From: an uncultured Eubacteriales bacterium
GTDB taxonomy: Bacteria > Bacillota > Clostridia > Oscillospirales > Oscillospiraceae
Direction of reading: 5' to 3'
Length of the DNA stretch: 18,864 nt
NCBI GenBank assembly: GCA_900546915.1
Contig: UREY01000031.1
Location: forward strand, 1 to 18,864
Translations under genes and position numbers: made by a program
Shown: one piece after another, positions 3,367 through 11,281 of the stretch
How positions within the stretch are numbered: position 1 is the first letter of the stretch
How the letters are laid out: the number at the start of each line of letters is the position of its first letter
Notes under the pieces: model-generated
What the model was told of the DNA's origin: nothing
What the model saw: only the letters and a program-made list of their open reading frames with translations
Database searches by the model: none

Positions 3367-3948
3367 TTACGAAAGTCGGCAGCGGACGGCCAGGCGGGCG
3401 CTGCCGCCTACGGTGCAGGTGAACAGCGTCAAGTCCCAAATTCCGGAGGTCATCTCCTCCACCGCCGTTTTTTCCAGAGTTTCCAGTTCCACCACGGTGT
3501 AAGACAGGACCCGGCCGGTGAGGTCTGTGAATTGCACCGAATCCCCCGGCTCCAGCTCGTTCAGACGCCCAAAATGGCTGGGGTAGTTGTGCCCGGCAAT
3601 GACGAGGTCTTGGGTGGATGGGGAACCGGCATACCGGCAGGGGGAGGTCTTCAGCGTAGGGAAGCTCCAGTCCCAGGCCACCGGGAGGCTGAGGTCCAGG
3701 GCGGGGATGGACAGAACGCCGGAGTAGCGCCGCTGCTCCACGGTCCGCAGGACCATGTCCGGCTCGGCCTCCCCGTCCCATTCTGAAGGGGAGGAGGAGG
3801 GCTGGATTTGGGGCAGAAGCTGGACCAGGGCAGTCCGGACCGCTTCTGCGGCCCGGCGCTGGTCCCAGAGGTTGTAGGCCGTCAGCAGCAGAGCCAGGGC
3901 CAGAAGAAGCCCGCCGGACAAAATGAGAAAGCGGCCGTTACGTCTCAT
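3367..3948 (-). CDS. Sortase, second enzyme of the pilus operon
   Basis: A 193-residue membrane-anchored cysteine transpeptidase. One N-terminal hydrophobic segment (about 7-25) precedes an extracellular sortase fold with catalytic His120 in AGHNY, Cys178 in TLFTC and Arg185 in ARLAVRC. There is no C-terminal membrane segment, unlike the class C enzyme encoded two genes earlier, so it looks more like a class D/B-type or housekeeping-type sortase that would anchor the finished pilus or handle the small LPQTG pilin. That division of labour is inference. Start: ATG 3948 gives an 11-bp overlap with the preceding pilin gene and is followed at once by the membrane anchor; the frame is open upstream to 3999 but that extension lacks membrane-protein character. 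Last gene of the operon. Confidence 0.87.
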   Translation of the reverse strand: MRRNGRFLILSGGLLLALALLLTAYNLWDQRRAAEAVRTALVQLLPQIQPSSSPSEWDGEAEPDMVLRTVEQRRYSGVLSIPALDLSLPVAWDWSFPTLKTSPCRYAGSPSTQDLVIAGHNYPSHFGRLNELEPGDSVQFTDLTGRVLSYTVVELETLEKTAVEEMTSGIWDLTLFTCTVGGSARLAVRCRLS

Positions 3949-4546
3949 GGCGTTTGGCGCCCCTTGCACGGCGCAGGCCTGCGGCGAGGAGCAGCCCACC
4001 GGCCAGAGCGAGGCAGGGGACCGGCCACCAGAGCTGGCCGGTTTGGGGAAGCTCCGGCGCCCTTGGCCCGGTAGGGTCCTCCGGCTGGGCAGGGGTTTCG
4101 GCCTCCGGCTTGATCAGTGCGGAGACGGACGCTCCGGCCGGAATCCAGAGGGTAACCGGCGCGGGCCGGTAGGTACCGGACTCCGACTTGTGGGCGCTGC
4201 CCAATACCAGGTATAGTCCCGGTTCCAGGCCGGAAAACGCCGCCGTTCCCTGGAGGACGGCCCCGGAGCCGGTAGCCGGGACCCGGTGCTGCTCCACATA
4301 GCGGGCCAGGGTTTTGGTCCGCTCGGTCCGCTGTTCGTTGGTGGCGCAGGAGAGACGGACCGGGCAGTCCTGAAATGGGTCCGTCAGCCCTTGGCTGCCG
4401 TCGGTCACCTGGTAAATTTGAAACGTCACCCCTTCATAGTCATAGGACAAGATCAGGGCTCCGTCCCCGGCGGCCCGGGCCGGGGTCAGGAGCAGGACGG
4501 TACACAAGCAGGAAAGGAGCAGCCTGGACCAGCTTCGTTTTTTCAT
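3938..4546 (-). CDS. Small LPQTG-anchored pilin subunit
   Basis: A 202-residue secreted surface protein. A signal peptide (positive MKKRSWSR, hydrophobic core, ARAA cleavage region near 24-27) precedes a beta-rich, Cna-B-like body (YDYEGVTFQIYQV, then GLEPGLYLVLGSA). A proline-rich stretch leads to the sorting signal LPQTG at 166-170, a hydrophobic segment and a basic tail RRARGAKR. The size and operon place fit a minor (basal or accessory) pilin. ATG 4546 overlaps the preceding sortase stop as ATGA, indicating translational coupling; the open frame to 4675 is antisense-like and rejected as a start. Its LPQTG signal differs from the IPHTG of the large pilin, which may direct them to different sortases. 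Confidence 0.85.
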   Translation of the reverse strand: MKKRSWSRLLLSCLCTVLLLTPARAAGDGALILSYDYEGVTFQIYQVTDGSQGLTDPFQDCPVRLSCATNEQRTERTKTLARYVEQHRVPATGSGAVLQGTAAFSGLEPGLYLVLGSAHKSESGTYRPAPVTLWIPAGASVSALIKPEAETPAQPEDPTGPRAPELPQTGQLWWPVPCLALAGGLLLAAGLRRARGAKRHET

Positions 4547-5394
4547 TCCGGACCGCCGCCTTCCCCGGCAGGCGTGGCAACCTGCCTTTTTTTTCGATGC
4601 CTGCGCCGGATCCAGAGGGGAAGCAGCACAAGTAAGAGAAGCAAAACCATTGCGCCCAGCAACCAGAAGGGCCAACCGGCGGAGCCTGCCCCGACCTGTG
4701 TTTCGGCTTCCTCGGTAACCCGGTGTCCCCGAACCAGGAGGCGGTGGGTATTGACGCCGTAGGGCACGCAGGTGTACAGGGTGACATAATCCATGCCCTC
4801 TGTGATGTACAGAGGTTCAATGTTGTCCGGAAGGGTGGTTTGGATTTTGTCCACCTCGTAGGTCATGTCCCGGTCCAGGATGGATACGGTGAACCGGTCT
4901 CCCACCTCCAGCTGGTCCAAGTCGGTGAACATCTTGGCCTTGACCAGTCCGTTGTGGGCGGTGAGGACGCAGTGGGTGCTGGGGCCGCCGGTGGGCAGGC
5001 TGGAGCCCAGCCAATAACCGGCTCCGGCCTGCAGCTCCTGCTCCTTGGTGCCCTGATAAATGGGCAGCTCCACGTGGATTTTGGGAATGCGGATGTAGCC
5101 CATCATGCCGTTGCCCAGGGGGTTGAGCAGACCGGCGACCCGGTCTGCCTCCTCCGGCGTGACGGTCAGCTGGTTGGGTTTGTCCAGCAGCTCCCGGTTG
5201 TATGCCTCCGCCGCCTCCCACAGGTCGGAGTAATCGATCCCCTGGCCCTCCAGCACCTGGTTGTACTGGGCCACCTCCCGCTTGGCCTGCCACCGGTAGA
5301 GCAGGTCGCTGGCGGTGGGGTACAGCAAAACGCCCAGGCCGACGAGCAGCAGAAGGAGGAAGAGTACGGTGCTGACGCGGGGTTTTCGTTTCAT
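4543..5394 (-). CDS. Class C (pilus-polymerising) sortase
   Basis: A 283-residue pilin polymerase. The N-terminal membrane segment (about 8-26) followed by YPTASDLLYRW is typical of class C enzymes. The catalytic triad is visible as His147 (LTAHNGL), Cys209 (TLYTC) and Arg218 in PYGVNTHRLLVRG. A second hydrophobic segment (about 241-262) and a basic tail give the usual class C C-terminal anchor. A textbook DPW/DPF lid is not present; SDLW at 56-59 sits in the corresponding region. The family joins pilin subunits through isopeptide bonds to a pilin lysine. The gene lies 92 bp after the large pilin, a gap that could hold a processing or attenuation site, and overlaps the small pilin by 4 bp. 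Confidence 0.92.
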   Translation of the reverse strand: MKRKPRVSTVLFLLLLLVGLGVLLYPTASDLLYRWQAKREVAQYNQVLEGQGIDYSDLWEAAEAYNRELLDKPNQLTVTPEEADRVAGLLNPLGNGMMGYIRIPKIHVELPIYQGTKEQELQAGAGYWLGSSLPTGGPSTHCVLTAHNGLVKAKMFTDLDQLEVGDRFTVSILDRDMTYEVDKIQTTLPDNIEPLYITEGMDYVTLYTCVPYGVNTHRLLVRGHRVTEEAETQVGAGSAGWPFWLLGAMVLLLLLVLLPLWIRRRHRKKRQVATPAGEGGGPE

Positions 5395-5486: not shown

Positions 5487-7457
5487 TTAGGCGCGCTTTT
5501 TCTTCCGGGAGATCAGGAACAGAACCGCAGCGGCTGCCAAGATGGCAATGCCCACGACGGTGTACACCACCGTACCGCTGCCGCCGGTGTGGGGAATCAG
5601 CGCGTTGGCAAATTGCACGGAGACGACGTGATCTGTCGTGTCCTTTACGGAGATGACGACCGTTAGCTCCTTATCGCTTGCCACGTATCCCTCCGGCGCT
5701 TTGGTTTCCTTCAGGTAGTAGGTGCCTGCGTCCAGACCGTCGCGGATTGCGTAACCGTCCGAACCGGAGGTCAATTTGATGATGCTGCCTTTGATGACGT
5801 TGCCCTCTGCGTCCTTCTGGTACAGTTCAAACTCCGCGCCGGGCAGGGGGGCGTTTGTTTCTTGATCATACTTAAAGACCGAGAGCTGAAAGGTGTCGAC
5901 CTGGACGATATCCTTTTCCGTCTCGCCGCCTTCATATTCCACCCAGGCGGTGTTGTAGTAAGTACCGGCGGTGATATCCTCTGCGGCGGTGGCGGAGTAG
6001 GTCAGCACAATGGGGGCCGTGCCGAATTCAGCTTGCGTGAAATACTCCGCATCGTACAGCTTCACCAGGTCCAGGGTGAGGGAGATGATGGTTTGCTGGC
6101 CTTCTGCGACGGTGGACTTTAGGGTATAGAGATTAGAAGGAACGTCTTTGCCGTTTACGGTAACCTTCAGAGAATCCTCGTTGAAAATGAGCTGGGGATC
6201 CATGCGGTCCTCAAAGGTCAGGAGATAGGTGCCGCCGTTGAGGGGACTGTTGTGGGAGAGGATCGATACCTCGGGGGGATCCACCTCAGCCGGCTCCAGG
6301 TAATTGGTCAGGTCCTCGGGTACGTTGGAGGTCAGAACGAAGTCCACCTGATCACCGGCAGCTACGGTGTCGGCATCCACCAGCTCCTCGCCGGACTGAA
6401 TCTTCTTCTCCAGGCCGGGGTAGCTGGTTTTGGAGCCGGTATCCGTGAGGGTGAAGGAGCAGTTGGATTCAAACGCAGTACCTTGATAGCAGTTGCATGT
6501 ATCCGGACCGTTTAACACGCCTTTCATTTGAACGGATGTCTGGCCTTCCTGGAGATTGGCAGCGGACCAAGTATGAGACAGCTCCTGGTTTAGTGTTTTC
6601 CAAGCCTCGGTATCCGGGTCCATATACTCTGCAAGGGGATAATCGTTGACGGTAAGGAGGTGATGATAAAAGTAGTAATATCCGAGGGCTGCAACCTGAG
6701 GATTTGTTTCCGCGCCCATTTCGTTGTGTTGTCCGCCCCTGCCTGGGTTCTTGCAGCTGAACAGATTGACCATGTAAGCCATTGTGGTATCTTCCAGCGA
6801 GGCAACCGGTTGGTCTCCGCCATAGGTTGCATAATGATCATTGTAAAAATCCAGATAGTATGTTCCCAAACATGCAACCGTGATGTCCGCGTCGCTCATG
6901 TCTTCGCTGCCGTAGCCTGCTTGGCGGAGGGCGGAGCCGATGGTAGCGTCGGATAGGGCCTTGTCCATTTCAGATACGCCGCCATAACCGAAGTCAATAT
7001 CCAGAGCGGCAATGGCGTCGTTACAGGAACGGCGTACGTTATTTCCCGCAAATTCATTCTTTGTTGCATGGACGAGATATACATCCAATTGGTCAAAGGC
7101 TTTGACCGTATCGTAGTATTCCGACTCCGGCGTATAGGGAGCCGTTCCGAGGAGAATGCTACCGTCTTGATACGCGTAATTTTTTGAGGAATTATTGATG
7201 ATCGTGATGGGAAAATCGGTCCAGTCACCGGGAACGGCATTTTCCTGTTTTATGGATGCGTCGCCAAGATTGACATTCAGGTCGCCGGTTGCCCCTTCGT
7301 TGATGATCACTTGGATTTCGTCGTCCACCAGGACAACGTCGACTCCCTCTGAGGTTTCGGGGTACTGGGGTGGGGTCTCCAGCTGGACGGCAAAGGCGTT
7401 GACCGTCAGGCCAAAGATCATGAGAGCCGCCAGGAGTATCGATAATACCTTTTTCAT
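5487..7457 (-). CDS. Large pilin with D2-type and Cna-B domains, IPHTG signal
   Basis: A 656-residue secreted pilin and the first gene of the operon. The signal peptide (1 to about 23, MKKVLSILLAALMIFG... AFA) is followed by about 320 residues that I do not recognise, containing six cysteines (145, 196, 235, 321, 323, 333). Then comes a fimbrial isopeptide D2-like region (about 345-515, starting SYPGLEKK), a Cna-B domain (about 522-610; candidate bond lysine Lys529, Glu584 in the E-box YYLKETKAPEGY), sorting signal IPHTG (621-625), a hydrophobic stretch and tail SRKKKRA. The C-terminal half reads as a pilus backbone; the N-terminal insert could be an adhesive or variable part. ATG 7457 has AAGGAGAG 6 nt upstream. 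By eye the N-terminal half is more AT-rich than its neighbours. Confidence 0.9.
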   Translation of the reverse strand: MKKVLSILLAALMIFGLTVNAFAVQLETPPQYPETSEGVDVVLVDDEIQVIINEGATGDLNVNLGDASIKQENAVPGDWTDFPITIINNSSKNYAYQDGSILLGTAPYTPESEYYDTVKAFDQLDVYLVHATKNEFAGNNVRRSCNDAIAALDIDFGYGGVSEMDKALSDATIGSALRQAGYGSEDMSDADITVACLGTYYLDFYNDHYATYGGDQPVASLEDTTMAYMVNLFSCKNPGRGGQHNEMGAETNPQVAALGYYYFYHHLLTVNDYPLAEYMDPDTEAWKTLNQELSHTWSAANLQEGQTSVQMKGVLNGPDTCNCYQGTAFESNCSFTLTDTGSKTSYPGLEKKIQSGEELVDADTVAAGDQVDFVLTSNVPEDLTNYLEPAEVDPPEVSILSHNSPLNGGTYLLTFEDRMDPQLIFNEDSLKVTVNGKDVPSNLYTLKSTVAEGQQTIISLTLDLVKLYDAEYFTQAEFGTAPIVLTYSATAAEDITAGTYYNTAWVEYEGGETEKDIVQVDTFQLSVFKYDQETNAPLPGAEFELYQKDAEGNVIKGSIIKLTSGSDGYAIRDGLDAGTYYLKETKAPEGYVASDKELTVVISVKDTTDHVVSVQFANALIPHTGGSGTVVYTVVGIAILAAAAVLFLISRKKKRA

Positions 7458-7687: not shown

Positions 7688-7715
7688 TTACAACAAAATT
7701 CCGATTTTGTTGTAA
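7688..7715 (+). repeat. Left recombination site (IRL) of the invertible segment
   Basis: The site is TTACAACAAAA, core TTCCGA, TTTTGTTGTAA: two 11-bp arms that are perfect reverse complements around an asymmetric 6-bp core (7699-7704). This 11-6-11 plan is that of Xer-type tyrosine recombinase sites. The same core occurs as its reverse complement at 10425-10430. The right (inner) arm and core, plus one more base, match the right-hand site exactly over 18 bp. Confidence 0.85.
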
Positions 7716-7774
7716 AAGAATTTCCACCGTTTTGCCGGGGGGGTGCAAACGGCGCTGCAAATTGCCGGTTTTCC

Positions 7775-7829
7775 AAAAGGCACGCCGAGGAAGGCTGGGA
7801 AATCCATTTTTCCAGTCTTCCTCGGCGTG
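7775..7829 (-). terminator. Leftward terminator insulating the pilus side
   Basis: A long hairpin with CACGCCGAGGAAG (7781-7793) pairing to CTTCCTCGGCGTG (7817-7829), extended inside by CTGG / CCAG, is followed on the - strand by CCTTTTGG. The layout resembles the 3315-3354 terminator. In the given orientation it would stop leftward transcripts from reaching the pilus operon; no - strand gene lies directly to its right, so insulation looks like its job. Confidence 0.6.
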
Positions 7830-7862
7830 TGTTTGGGATGCGGCGCAACCATGTGTCGGAGA

Positions 7863-7888
7863 GGGGGAAGCGCGGCCGCGCTTCCCCC
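7863..7888. repeat. Perfect 26-bp palindrome upstream of promoter P1
   Basis: Two 13-bp halves, GGGGGAAGCGCGG and its exact reverse complement, meet without a spacer. It ends 7 bp before the P1 -35 element. There is no T-tract, so it is either a regulator operator or part of the transcription barrier between P1 and the pilus leader. Confidence 0.5.
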
Positions 7889-7895
7889 TATGCGC

Positions 7896-7924
7896 TTGAC
7901 GGGGTTGCGGTTCTCTGTTATGAT
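7896..7924 (+). promoter_or_regulatory. Promoter P1 of the cargo operon
   Basis: TTGACG (7896-7901), a 17-bp spacer and TATGAT (7919-7924) form a near-consensus sigma-A promoter, with transcription expected from about 7931 into the GNAT-like and MATE genes. It lies inside the invertible segment and so moves with the genes it serves. Confidence 0.75.
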
Positions 7925-7980
7925 AAAAATGAAGGCGGACTTTGCCTGATATGATATGAATTTTATAAATGAGGTCTTGT

Positions 7981-8790
7981 ATGAATGTACAGCAGCTGTG
8001 TGAAAAAATAAGCCTGCCGTCTGAGGTCAGAAGCAGGCTGGCGGATTGTTTCCGTGCGGTTGACTTCGGCGCGGTGGACGGGGCATTGCGGGATTTTCTG
8101 GTTTATGAGAAGATTCCGGACGCTTGCGCGGCCTTGCAGGAAAAGCTGGGAGACGACGAGGATCACATGAAAATGCTGGCCTGCATGTTGCAGGCGTCGG
8201 CCAATGCCTATGCCGTTTATCGGGAAAGGGGCGTGGACGACGGGATCTACGTTGCCACCATGAAATGCTACACACGATTTCTAAACGAGACGCATCAAAT
8301 GACAGGCCGGTATGATTTTGACCGGTATGGGTGGACAGGCCGTCAGGCAGGCTGTCATTTGTTTCGAATCGGCCAACTGGAATATGAGATCAGCCCCCGG
8401 GCGGACCGAGTTACGATTGAAATCCATATCCCGTCCGATGCGGATTTTTCCCCGGCTTCTGTGGAGGAATCCCTGAAGCAGGCAAGGGCCTTTTTTGCCC
8501 GGTATGATCCGCAGCTGTCTCATTGCGCGTATTGCTGCCGTTCCTGGCTGCTGGACCGTCAGCTGAGGGGGATGCTGGGGAAGGACTCTCATATTCTCAG
8601 TTTTCAGAACCGGTTTACCATATTCGACGAAGGGGAAGCCGGCGCCGATGTGCTGCGGTGGCTGTTCCAAACCCAGGAGACTTGCTATGAGGCCTTACCC
8701 GAGAGGACTTCTTTGCAAAGAAAGGTGAAAATGCATCTTTTATCCGGCGGTGTCATTCGAAATGCAGGCGGCATATTGTGCAAACCGTGA
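7981..8790 (+). CDS. GNAT-like acyltransferase-family protein (DUF5596 type)
   Basis: A 269-residue soluble protein that I place, from overall pattern, in the Firmicutes family annotated as acyltransferase domain-containing (GNAT-like N- and C-terminal halves, DUF5596). Supporting features are the C-terminal CxYCCRSWLLDRQL stretch followed by FQNRFTIFDEG, and the beta-strand run LEYEISPRADRVTIEIHIPSDA before it. No signal peptide or membrane segment is seen. The substrate is unknown. Start: ATG 7969 is in frame but lacks an RBS, while ATG 7981 has GAGG at 6-nt spacing and was chosen. It is the first gene of the cargo operon, about 50 nt after the P1 start, and 76 bp before the MATE gene. The family call is moderate; existence of the gene is secure. 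Confidence 0.7.
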   Translation: MNVQQLCEKISLPSEVRSRLADCFRAVDFGAVDGALRDFLVYEKIPDACAALQEKLGDDEDHMKMLACMLQASANAYAVYRERGVDDGIYVATMKCYTRFLNETHQMTGRYDFDRYGWTGRQAGCHLFRIGQLEYEISPRADRVTIEIHIPSDADFSPASVEESLKQARAFFARYDPQLSHCAYCCRSWLLDRQLRGMLGKDSHILSFQNRFTIFDEGEAGADVLRWLFQTQETCYEALPERTSLQRKVKMHLLSGGVIRNAGGILCKP

Positions 8791-8866
8791 TGCCTCGAAG
8801 CCGCGCTGCCCGTGTGCATGCAGAATGCGAAGATCGAACTTACATCATGAAAGGGACGGAGCGCAA

Positions 8867-10231
8867 ATGGGAAGGGAACTGACACAGGGACCCGTCACGA
8901 AAACGCTGCTGCGTTTTGCTATTCCAATGATTTTGGGGGACCTGCTGCAGCAATGCTATAACATTGCCGACACGCTGATTGTGGGAAGATTTCTGGGGAC
9001 AGACGCGCTGGCTGCAGTGGGCTCGGCGTTTTCCCTGATGACCTTCCTGACGGCCATTTTACTGGGGCTTGCCATGGGCAGCGGCACGGTTTTTTCCATC
9101 TATTATGGGCGGAAGGATGAACACGGGCTGAAGGAAGGGATTCTGGCTTCCTTCACCCTGCTTGCCGCCGTCACGGTACTCTTGCATATTCTGACCTTTG
9201 CTTGCTTGGACTGGACGATTGCGGTGCTGCGTACGCCGGATCATCTGGTGGGGATGACGCGGGAGTACCTCGCGGTGATTTTTGTCGGAATGACCGGCAT
9301 CTTTCTGTACAACTTTTTTGCTTCGTTGCTGCGTTCTCTGGGAAATTCCGTGGCTCCGTTTGTGTTTCTGGCGATTTCTGCCTGCCTGAATATCGTCCTG
9401 GACCTTTGGTTTGTGGCAGGCCTCCACCGCGGCGTGGCCGGAGCGGCGGAGGCCACCGTCCTTTCTCAATATGTCTCCGGAATTGGAATTGCCGTTTACA
9501 CCAGATGCAAATTCCCAAAGCTGCTGAAGCGTGACCGCCGGGTCTCCCTGCGGCTCAGCCGCGTGAAGGAAATTACCCGCTTTTCCGCGCTGACCTGCTT
9601 GCAGCAGTCGGTGATGAACCTGGGGATTCTGGCCGTGCAGGGACTGGTCAACAGCTTCGGGCCGGTGATTATGGCGGCTTTTGCCGCCGCCGTTAAGATC
9701 GACGCCTTTGCTTACCTTCCCGTACAGGATTTCGGCCATGCGTTTTCCACCTTTGTCTCCCAAAACTACGGCGCGAAACAGACCGGCCGCATACAGAAGG
9801 GCGTTCGGACGGCGTTCTGGATTTCCGCCTCATTCGGCGGGATTCTCTCCCTGCTGGTCTGCGCGCTGGCGGGACCGCTGATGGGACTGTTTGTCCATGG
9901 GTCCGAAGGGGCGGTCATTGGGGAAGGCGTCCGGTATCTCCGCATAGAAGGCGCCTTTTATTGCCTCATCGGCGCGCTGTTTTTGCTGTACGGGCTGTAT
10001 CGCGGCCTGGGAAAACCCGGCATGTCGGTGGTTCTCACGGTTGTGTCTCTGGGCGTCCGGGTGGCCTTGGCCTATGCGCTTTCTGCCGTGCCGGGCATCG
10101 GCGTTGCAGGAATCTGGTGGGCGGTTCCCATCGGCTGGTTCTTAGCAGATGCCCTGGGCCTGGGATACTATGTTGCGCGGCGCAAAACATGGATGACATC
10201 CATGGCCCGGGAGATGGATCCACCGGCGTAA
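8867..10231 (+). CDS. MATE-family multidrug/metabolite exporter
   Basis: A 454-residue inner-membrane antiporter of the MATE (NorM/DinF) type, exporting cationic drugs or metabolites with Na+ or H+ in the family. The N terminus LTQGPVTKTLLRFAIPMILGDLLQQCYNIADTL.. carries the typical MATE opening (P at IPM, LLQQ-YN-AD), followed by VGRFLGTDALAAVGSAF. Hydropathy by eye supports 12 membrane segments in two halves, the second starting near ITRFSALTCLQQSVMNLG. Length matches the family. ATG 8867 has GGAG at 5-nt spacing; the open frame from 8750 overlaps the preceding gene and lacks membrane character. It lies wholly inside the invertible segment and has no clear terminator before the right site, so its transcript may run on across that site. 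Confidence 0.92.
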   Translation: MGRELTQGPVTKTLLRFAIPMILGDLLQQCYNIADTLIVGRFLGTDALAAVGSAFSLMTFLTAILLGLAMGSGTVFSIYYGRKDEHGLKEGILASFTLLAAVTVLLHILTFACLDWTIAVLRTPDHLVGMTREYLAVIFVGMTGIFLYNFFASLLRSLGNSVAPFVFLAISACLNIVLDLWFVAGLHRGVAGAAEATVLSQYVSGIGIAVYTRCKFPKLLKRDRRVSLRLSRVKEITRFSALTCLQQSVMNLGILAVQGLVNSFGPVIMAAFAAAVKIDAFAYLPVQDFGHAFSTFVSQNYGAKQTGRIQKGVRTAFWISASFGGILSLLVCALAGPLMGLFVHGSEGAVIGEGVRYLRIEGAFYCLIGALFLLYGLYRGLGKPGMSVVLTVVSLGVRVALAYALSAVPGIGVAGIWWAVPIGWFLADALGLGYYVARRKTWMTSMAREMDPPA

Positions 10232-10331
10232 TGTACCTCGGAGCGCTGCTGCGCCGTCTTGTCACAAAATGGAAATCTTTACCAAATTCACACCTTGTCA
10301 AGGGCAGTTTGCGTTTTTTCAGGGTAAGTAC

Positions 10332-10360
10332 TTGAAAAGTAAATGGGAAGTTGCTACAAT
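10332..10360 (+). promoter_or_regulatory. Promoter P2, outward-facing switch promoter
   Basis: TTGAAA (10332-10337), exactly 17 bp, then TACAAT (10355-10360): a near-consensus sigma-A promoter with its start near 10367, about 47 nt before the right site. In the given orientation no + strand gene follows; transcription would enter the 3' end of the recombinase gene as antisense. After inversion it would point at the pilus leader. A GGAGG at 10408-10412 has no suitable start codon after it in either orientation. Confidence 0.75.
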
Positions 10361-10413
10361 ATTGTATAACCTGTCGCCGGAGCGGGCACACGGCGCTTCA
10401 ATAGAACGGAGGT

Positions 10414-10441
10414 TTACAACAAAATCGGAACTTTGTTGTCA
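10414..10441 (+). repeat. Right recombination site (IRR) of the invertible segment
   Basis: TTACAACAAAA, core TCGGAA, CTTTGTTGTCA. Read on the - strand, the core is TTCCGA, the same as the left site, so the two sites are inverted. The inner arm is identical to the left site; the outer arm (10431-10441) differs at two of 11 positions. Its last three bases are the recombinase stop codon (TGA on the - strand), which may explain the divergence. Confidence 0.85.
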
Positions 10442-11281
10442 GATAACCAAGTCGAGCTGTTCCATAAGCCGTTGGTGCTCCGTACCGCTTTCCATAATAT
10501 AGATTCGGGTGGTTTCGATGCTGGCGTGGCCGAGAAGGTCCGCCAGCTTTGCCATGTCCTTGTCCAGGCTGTAAAATGTCTTGGCAAATAAATGGCGGAA
10601 ATTGTGGGGGAACACCTTGCTGGGCTCTACGTTTGCCAGTTGGCAGAGCCGGTGCAGCTCTCGCCAGACGTTGGAGCGGTCCATGGGGGCGCCGGATCTG
10701 GTGACGAAGATGGGACCGGCGGTCATTTGGCGGCTGCTGCAATAGGACTGCAGCAGGCTTCGGAGCTTGGCGGGGAGAAAGATGAGGCGCTGCTTTCCCT
10801 TGCAGTCTACCATAGTCCGGCCGGTTTGCAGAGACTCCACCGTGACAAACGGGAGCTCAGAAATTCGGATGCCGGTGGCGGCCAGGGTCTGAATCAGGCA
10901 GAACAGGCGCTGATTGCCGTGGGAGCGGGCCGCCTCTAACAGGCGGCGGTATTCCGGCTTGCTCAGCTCCTGCGCCTCATTTCGGAAAATCTGCCGCTGC
11001 AGCCGCAGCGGTTTGACCCGGCAATCGCTCCAGCCCAGAAACTGGAACAATCCGTTGGCTGCGGCCAGCATGGAGTTCACGGTGCCGGCGGCATAGCTTC
11101 CGGTCAGATGCTGCTTCCAATCCATGACGGCCTCCTTGTCTATGGTGTTGTTCCCGGCGAGAAACCGGAGCAGGTTTTGCAAGTCCCGGTTGTATTTTTG
11201 AATGGTACCCGGACTTCGCTCTGCCTCCTGCAGATATTTGCAATAATCCTGCAGCTGTGTCTGTGTGATCATCGGATGCAT
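10439..11281 (-). CDS. Tyrosine recombinase (Xer/phage-integrase family), predicted invertase
   Basis: A 280-residue site-specific recombinase, the usual XerC/D-like length. The N-terminal SAM-like core-binding domain (about 5-95) begins TQTQLQDYCKYLQEAERSP. The catalytic domain has all expected residues: Arg139 (ATGIRISEL), Lys163 (KGKQR), His226-x-x-Arg229 (HNFRH), His252 (LGHASIETT) and nucleophile Tyr261 (TRIY). ATG 11281 follows AAGGAGGG at 6-nt spacing; the open frame running on to 12079 is antisense to spoVT and is rejected. Its last codon and stop lie in the outer arm of the right-hand site, so the gene directly abuts the DNA it is predicted to invert. Recombinases of this type drive phase switches in Clostridia and other bacteria. 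Confidence 0.92.
   Translation of the reverse strand: MHPMITQTQLQDYCKYLQEAERSPGTIQKYNRDLQNLLRFLAGNNTIDKEAVMDWKQHLTGSYAAGTVNSMLAAANGLFQFLGWSDCRVKPLRLQRQIFRNEAQELSKPEYRRLLEAARSHGNQRLFCLIQTLAATGIRISELPFVTVESLQTGRTMVDCKGKQRLIFLPAKLRSLLQSYCSSRQMTAGPIFVTRSGAPMDRSNVWRELHRLCQLANVEPSKVFPHNFRHLFAKTFYSLDKDMAKLADLLGHASIETTRIYIMESGTEHQRLMEQLDLVI

What the first reader, a model, noticed from the sequence alone, without database searches (positions are those of the whole stretch)
7688..10441. Inverted Xer-type sites define a predicted 2.7-kb invertible segment
Seen: two 28-bp sites with 11-6-11 architecture. Their cores are TTCCGA at 7699-7704 and its exact reverse complement at 10425-10430; core plus inner arm match over 18 bp, and outer arms match at 9 of 11. 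A tyrosine recombinase with all active-site residues ends inside the right site. Known: this recombinase family inverts DNA between short inverted sites in phase-variable loci. Inferred: this is a DNA switch. I do not recognise this exact locus layout.
Basis: partly seen in the sequence, partly recalled or inferred. Interest (0 to 1): 0.95.

Follow-up and report, generated by a model that had tools for sequence, protein, structure and literature searches.

The report
Gene-carrying DNA switch for pili
A bacterium that is probably one of the Clostridia appears to turn its surface pili on and off by flipping a piece of DNA that holds their promoter; this kind of switch is already known, but here the flipping piece is about ten times longer than usual because it also carries two whole genes.

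Summary
Two 28-bp 11-6-11 sites lie in inverted orientation at 7688-7715 and 10414-10441, with identical cores and inner arms; none is expected by chance. The layout is tyrosine recombinase, site, segment, site, SpaA-type pilus operon, with recombinase and operon reading the same way. The strongest promoter match of the window lies 53 bp inside the right site and points away from the pili, so the sequenced state is predicted OFF; inversion would aim it at the pilus operon.

Of 102 related recombinase genes examined, 77 have such a site pair at their 3' end (control: 1 of 224 places). Spacing is 142-418 bp in 75 of 77. Promoter calls are 18 ON, 49 OFF, 10 undecided. Some relatives hold homologous segments in opposite orientations. 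The kind is known: a published Clostridia inverton group has similar size and measured flipping (PMC11892184, passages).

Unusual here is the 2726-bp spacing, with an acyltransferase-like gene and a MATE transporter inside. One other member (728 bp, RelB antitoxin) also carries cargo. Flipping of this very locus is inferred, not seen.

The parts
10439..11281 (-). Xer-like tyrosine recombinase, 280 aa; stop codon inside the right site
   Evidence: Pfam Phage_integrase 1.5e-23 and Phage_int_SAM_1 1.3e-10; below NCBIfam XerC/XerD/XerA cut-offs; best match among solved structures XerD 1a0p
10414..10441 (-). Right recombination site, 11-6-11, core 10425-10430
7688..7715 (+). Left recombination site, 11-6-11, core 7699-7704
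7716..10413 (.). Predicted invertible segment between the sites (2698 bp)
   Evidence: start-to-start spacing 2726 bp here, 142-728 bp in the 76 other paired genes
10332..10360 (+). Predicted invertible promoter TTGAAA-17-TACAAT with TG before the -10; points at the recombinase now (OFF), at the pilus operon after inversion
   Evidence: highest-scoring promoter match of the whole window on both strands (ad hoc score)
7969..8790 (+). Cargo gene 1: NAT_N/GNAT_C acyltransferase-like protein, 273 aa
   Evidence: PF18164 6.9e-41, PF18082 1.3e-21
8867..10231 (+). Cargo gene 2: MATE-family transporter (start at the ATG at 8867 is inferred; the ORF is open from 8750)
   Evidence: scanned as 8750-10231: PF01554 1.3e-49, TIGR00797 187 bits, above its cut-off
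7896..7924 (+). Predicted promoter of the two cargo genes, TTGACG-17-TATGAT with TG before the -10
7772..7838 (.). Long stable hairpin at the left inner end of the segment, possible insulator or terminator
5487..7457 (-). Predicted target, first gene: SpaA/SpaH-like LPXTG pilin, 656 aa
   Evidence: SpaA 6.7e-21 and Gram_pos_anchor 3.3e-06; SpaH/EbpB-type model 83.5 bits, below its cut-off of 95
4543..5394 (-). Predicted target: class C sortase
   Evidence: NF033745 234.6 bits, above cut-off 160
3938..4675 (-). Predicted target: small LPXTG-type surface protein (LPQTG near its C-terminus)
   Evidence: translation; no Pfam match; weak pilin match
3367..3999 (-). Predicted target: second sortase
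   Evidence: PF04203 5.9e-16

Best explanation
This is a recombinase-linked invertible-promoter switch (inverton) that controls a sortase-assembled pilus operon. The recombinase binds the two 28-bp sites and exchanges strands at the shared 6-bp core TTCCGA, inverting the 2.7-kb segment. The promoter at 10332-10360 sits just inside the right site. In the sequenced orientation it fires toward the 3' end of the recombinase gene, so the pilus operon lacks a promoter (OFF). After inversion it lies just inside the left site and fires leftward through a leader of about 300 nt into the pilin gene (ON). Unlike ordinary members, the segment has gained an acyltransferase-like gene and a MATE transporter with their own promoter, which ride along on each inversion and always read in the same direction as the switching promoter. 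Shown here: the sites, gene order, promoter match and the pattern in relatives. Inferred: inversion of this locus, binding and strand exchange by this recombinase, and promoter activity.
For: Sites are exact and not chance. Of 102 distinct recombinase genes examined, 77 have an inverted site pair near the 3' end, against 1 of 224 control places. Over the 77 pairs core identity is 100%, inner arms 83%, outer arms 76% (the pairing rule allowed 2 mismatches in the central 18). Promoter calls: 49 toward the recombinase, 18 toward the downstream gene, 10 undecided of 77; in 60 of 77 the best match lies 20-45 bp from a segment end. Of 21 homologous segment pairs, 7 align in reverse and all 7 have opposite promoter calls; 14 align forward, and the 10 of these with both called agree. 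For L066/L151 the recombinase genes are colinear at 89% while the segment is reversed at 81%. Surface-protein domains are the most frequent families in downstream genes of relatives. In the window the highest-scoring promoter match is the one inside the right site, and no minus-strand promoter-like match was reported between the pilin gene and the left site.
Against: No read, assembly or conspecific genome shows the other orientation of this locus. The spacing is 2726 bp against a median of 261 bp, so inversion may be slower or lost. The outer arms differ at 2 of 11 positions. Promoter scores use ad hoc weights made here; low-scoring minus-strand matches do exist in the pilin leader (12.3-12.5). 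Of the 102 genes, 25 had no pair under the rule, 16 of them with at least 1500 bp downstream. The one control hit scored 49, and one accepted pair scored 48 (L148).
Confidence: 0.78

Rival explanations
1. A locked switch: the segment once inverted like its relatives, but the cargo insertion has fixed it, so the pili are permanently OFF (or driven from elsewhere) in this lineage.
For: Longest spacing by far among 77; no copy in the other orientation was found, though no conspecific genome could be searched.
Against: Core and inner arms are still identical and the recombinase is full-length with its active-site residues; the pilus genes are full-length, which is odd for a locus silenced for long.
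Confidence: 0.13
2. Control after initiation, as recalled for C. difficile cwpV and flagellar switches: orientation decides whether a transcript passes a terminator or Rho-dependent stop, not where the promoter points.
For: Very stable hairpin at 7772-7838 inside the segment; the title of PMC7446863 (search listing) names Rho in a C. difficile switch; the rest of this mechanism is recalled.
Against: No minus-strand promoter-like match upstream of the pilin outside the segment, whereas most family segments hold an outward promoter match near one end (60 of 77 within 20-45 bp).
Confidence: 0.06
3. The sites are attachment sites of a mobile or integron-like cassette that brought in the GNAT and MATE genes.
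For: The cargo lies between the two sites; the recombinase is integrase-like.
Against: The sites are inverted, which gives inversion and not excision; 75 of 77 paired loci have only 142-418 bp between site starts; the integron-integrase cut-off is not met.
Confidence: 0.03

Closest known systems
Clostridia inverton group 139 with invertase group 35 (Microbiome 2025, PMC11892184; start of abstract, passages and section 8 seen)
   Same: Tyrosine recombinase near a short inverton in Clostridia; the two examples whose coordinates I read have start-to-start repeat spacings of 231 and 241 bp, within the range found here; orientation shifts measured in reads
   Different: Their repeats and recombinases were not compared with ours, so identity is likely but untested; the passages I saw describe no cargo genes
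C. difficile RecV switches (PMC5903667, passages; starts of abstracts)
   Same: Tyrosine recombinase inverting segments upstream of surface or motility genes (flagellar and cwpV switches)
   Different: RecV is required for some but not all switches of its genome; in the loci paired here the sites start at the recombinase gene's own 3' end
E. coli fim switch and Providencia stuartii fimbrial switch (PMC5903667, passages)
   Same: Invertible segment at a fimbria locus; the Providencia segment (844 bp) encloses a reading frame
   Different: Gram-negative fimbriae (recalled); the enclosed frame is a recombinase, not unrelated cargo
XerC/XerD at dif
   Same: Same enzyme superfamily and 11-6-11 site layout (layout recalled)
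   Different: Scores far below the XerC/XerD cut-offs; paired inverted sites and a promoter segment

Membership tests
Clostridia recombinase-linked promoter inverton (defined by the survey in this report) | Recombinase homologous to the family | tested here: met
   Most surveyed relatives are 41-57% identical over nearly the full length; a few are lower (29-40%) or partial
Clostridia recombinase-linked promoter inverton (defined by the survey in this report) | Partly palindromic 11-6-11 site at the recombinase 3' end with an inverted partner downstream | tested here: met
   Window score 58; range over the 77 pairs 48-61
Clostridia recombinase-linked promoter inverton (defined by the survey in this report) | Outward promoter match close to one segment end | tested here: met
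   53 bp from the right site, score 21.0; 60 of 77 lie at 20-45 bp
Clostridia recombinase-linked promoter inverton (defined by the survey in this report) | Same-strand surface gene downstream | tested here: met
   Pilin gene starts 231 bp beyond the left site, sortases follow
Clostridia recombinase-linked promoter inverton (defined by the survey in this report) | Short segment (spacing about 140-420 bp) | tested here: not met
   2726 bp; the only other outlier is 728 bp. Treated as variation within the kind, not as a defining feature
Published inverton group 139 / invertase group 35 | Sequence membership in their repeat and invertase clusters | not testable with these tools
Any active inverton | Both orientations observed for this locus | not testable with these tools
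   No reads and no genome of the window held; no close copy in the scans made
Xer/dif chromosome-dimer resolution | XerC/XerD model cut-off | tested here: not met
   128.2 vs 329.6 bits (XerD), 115.9 vs 335.15 bits (XerC)
Integron integrase | Integron integrase model cut-off | tested here: not met
   45.2 vs 265 bits

The most novel reading that the evidence does not exclude
Recombinase-linked promoter invertons act as landing places for cargo genes, and the cargo becomes tied to the switch. Here the GNAT and MATE genes always read in the same direction as the switching promoter, so in the ON state their transcript could run on into the pilus operon, and in the OFF state it runs antisense into the recombinase gene. 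Orientation would then link transporter expression, pilus expression and the flipping rate.
Probability: 0.22. Interest if true: 0.7.

Novelty: new variant of a known kind. Interest (0 to 1): 0.5.

Why it matters
It gives a concrete predicted target (a sortase-assembled pilus) and a predicted current state (OFF) for a common class of Clostridia switches. It also suggests that such a switch can hold whole genes. If the long version still flips, it offers a natural test of how segment length affects flipping, and of whether genes caught inside a switch become part of its control.

Tried and rejected
Searching the window's own genome failed: none is held. The genome-contig scan found one relative, at 47% identity. 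Viral contigs gave no exact site match and no relative. Placing the window taxonomically by its SNF2 helicase (matches at 33-43% identity) and by its SpoVT-like regulator (top rows 58% and 61%) did not find close kin, so 'Clostridia' is inferred from the relatives. Asking whether the GNAT and MATE genes are neighbours elsewhere failed: GNAT had no match in 43 genomes (E<=1e-25) or 46 genomes (E<=1e-15), and the tool warns that an empty answer shows nothing.

Considered and rejected: chance repeat; integron or attachment-site cassette (inverted sites); Xer/dif site. A search for short repeats shared by the two cargo borders found 8-bp matches at most, so no insertion scar was identified. My first pair rule missed the window's own pair and some others because it asked for an exact 12-base centre; one search uses a looser rule with a control. 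Of the 16 unpaired genes with at least 1500 bp downstream, a still looser rule, for which no control was run, gives possible partners at 151-263 bp for five (L073, L120, L127, L131, L162).

Paper searches (the first found nothing) listed no gene-carrying recombinase-linked inverton of this kind by title or start of abstract. Only open-licence PMC papers are held, and long listings were cut, so this does not show absence from print.
Full report
CHECK OF THE OBSERVATION. Left: 7688-7715, TTACAACAAAA-TTCCGA-TTTTGTTGTAA. Right: 10414-10441, on the minus strand TGACAACAAAG-TTCCGA-TTTTGTTGTAA. They are the first-ranked inverted repeat of the window (32-nt arms, 91% complementary). A 26-base pattern allowing three mismatches matches these two places only, with none in 200 shuffles. 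The recombinase gene 11281-10439 ends inside the right site; aligned with XerD (1a0p) it keeps the R, K, HxxR, H and Y positions (that these are the catalytic residues is general knowledge).

ANATOMY. Reading leftward on the minus strand: recombinase (11281-10439), right site, segment, left site, then a pilus operon. That operon holds a SpaA/SpaH-like LPXTG pilin (7457-5487), a class C sortase (5394-4543), a small LPXTG-type protein (4675-3938) and a second sortase (3999-3367). Inside the segment, on the plus strand, lie a NAT_N/GNAT_C acyltransferase-like gene (7969-8790) and a MATE transporter (to 10231). Two of them are in the segment: 7896-7924 (20.1), in front of the GNAT gene, and 10332-10360 (21.0, the highest), 53 bp inside the right site. 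Both point right, away from the pilus operon. The consensus scan reported no minus-strand match between the pilin gene and the left site; on the ad hoc score that stretch holds low minus-strand matches only (12.3-12.5). The segment's left end also holds a very stable hairpin (7772-7838, in a fold of -54.3 kcal/mol) and a 26-bp palindrome at 7863-7888.

FAMILY SURVEY. No genome is held for the window. The genome scan gave one relative, L001, a Lachnospiraceae MAG, whose recombinase (47% identity) ends in a site of very similar sequence with an inverted copy 237 bp on. I fetched flanks for 96 places; not every listed place was fetched. With L001 and the window these 98 sequences hold 102 distinct recombinase genes.

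SITES IN THE FAMILY. Under one rule (28-mers, inverted identity at least 20 of 28, central 18 at least 16, both partly palindromic) 77 of 102 have a pair near the recombinase stop, against 1 of 224 control places in the same loci. Scores of the 77 are 48-61; the control hit scored 49. In 72 of 77 the first site starts within -30 to +40 of the stop codon. Of 86 genes with at least 1500 bp downstream, 70 are paired. The 25 unpaired genes include 9 with less downstream sequence than that, one locus with 100 unread bases there (L050) and one with 10 (L139); a looser rule without a control gives five more possible pairs at 151-263 bp. Core identity over the 77 is 100%, inner arms 83%, outer arms 76%, as expected if the 6-bp core is the exchange region (inference).

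SPACING. Median start-to-start spacing is 261 bp; 75 of 77 lie at 142-418 bp, L143 at 728 bp and the window at 2726 bp. The window is thus the clear outlier. In L143 the extra length holds a RelB-family antitoxin gene (PF04221, 2.7e-8) with its own promoter match. A second promoter-like sequence there, found by eye, has its -10 end 32 bp from the far site and aims at LPXTG-like genes; the automatic ON call for L143 rests on the antitoxin's promoter. In both outliers the cargo reads in the same direction as the switching promoter and lies behind it.

EVIDENCE THAT SUCH SEGMENTS INVERT. Promoter direction differs between relatives: 49 toward the recombinase, 18 toward the downstream gene, 10 undecided of 77; in 60 of 77 the best match lies 20-45 bp from a segment end. 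Homology tests this independently. Of 21 segment pairs alignable at E<=1e-8 (over 70-203 bases), 7 align in reverse and all 7 have opposite promoter calls; 14 align forward, and the 10 of these with both called agree. In L066 and L151 the recombinase genes are colinear (89% over 838 bases) while the segment is reversed (81% over 191 bases); L151 and L152 show the same (recombinase 83%, segment 82% over 203, reversed). These comparisons share ancestry and some are between copies in one genome (L132/L134; L076, L165, L166); none shows both orientations of one locus within a species. The 1.5-kb regions downstream of L066, L151 and L152 do not match each other by blastn, so recombinase plus segment looks like a portable unit (inference).

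TARGETS. I picked one gene downstream of the segment for 46 of the 49 loci then held and scanned 41 of them, leaving out five very long ones. Most frequent Pfam families among the 41: Flg_new 7, SLH 6, Flg_new_2 5, LRR_5 4, SpaA 4 (the window's pilin among them), LRR_8 4, dockerin 3 (25 of 68 families were shown). Domains typical of surface proteins head this list; I did not count how many of the 41 are surface proteins in all, and other kinds occur.

MECHANISM. The best reading is an invertible promoter: OFF as sequenced, ON after inversion, when the promoter would lie near 7770 pointing left with a leader of about 300 nt before the pilin ATG at 7457. The GNAT and MATE genes would keep their own promoter in both states. 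No terminator-like site was called between the MATE stop and the right site. In the ON state MATE transcripts could therefore run into the pilus operon, and in the OFF state into the recombinase gene from behind. That last part is inference.

COMPARISON WITH WHAT IS KNOWN. PMC11892184 (start of abstract, passages and section 8 seen) describes inverton group 139, 33 invertons of which 32 are from Clostridia, linked to tyrosine recombinase group 35. Two members (Clostridium sp. D5, Intestinimonas butyriciproducens) have start-to-start repeat spacings of 231 and 241 bp by the coordinates given, and shift orientation in culture. Size, taxon and recombinase type fit the family found here, but the sequences could not be compared. 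PMC5903667 (passages) describes a putative Providencia stuartii fimbrial switch of 844 bp that encloses a recombinase frame, so longer, gene-holding switches are reported in other groups. The kind is therefore known; the gene-carrying version in this Clostridia family is a variant, and my paper searches listed no description of it by title or start of abstract.

VERDICT. The switch is of a known kind with an unusual, cargo-carrying segment. Inversion of this very locus remains to be shown.

Noticed in passing
L143:1611-2366 (G745): A second member of the family with a long segment (728-bp spacing) that holds a RelB-family antitoxin gene; no toxin-like gene was noticed inside among ORFs of 80 aa or more, though only the antitoxin was scanned. 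A promoter-like sequence at the far site points toward LPXTG-like genes.
   Followed up: partly
L066, L151, L152: Recombinase gene and segment are 81-89% identical in three genomes while their 1.5-kb downstream regions do not match by blastn: the switch looks portable.
   Followed up: partly
G105 (L076, L162, L163, L165, L166, L167): One genome holds six recombinase relatives, so several such switches may coexist in one cell.
   Followed up: no
window:7772-7838 and 7863-7888: Two strong palindromes at the left inner end of the segment, without a clear T-run; role unknown.
   Followed up: partly
window:11549-12091: SpoVT-like regulator divergent from the recombinase gene; it scores below the NCBIfam SpoVT cut-off (203.8 vs 235.9) and could be a local regulator of the switch.
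   Followed up: no
window:10549-10577: Promoter-like match on the plus strand inside the recombinase gene, antisense to it.
   Followed up: no
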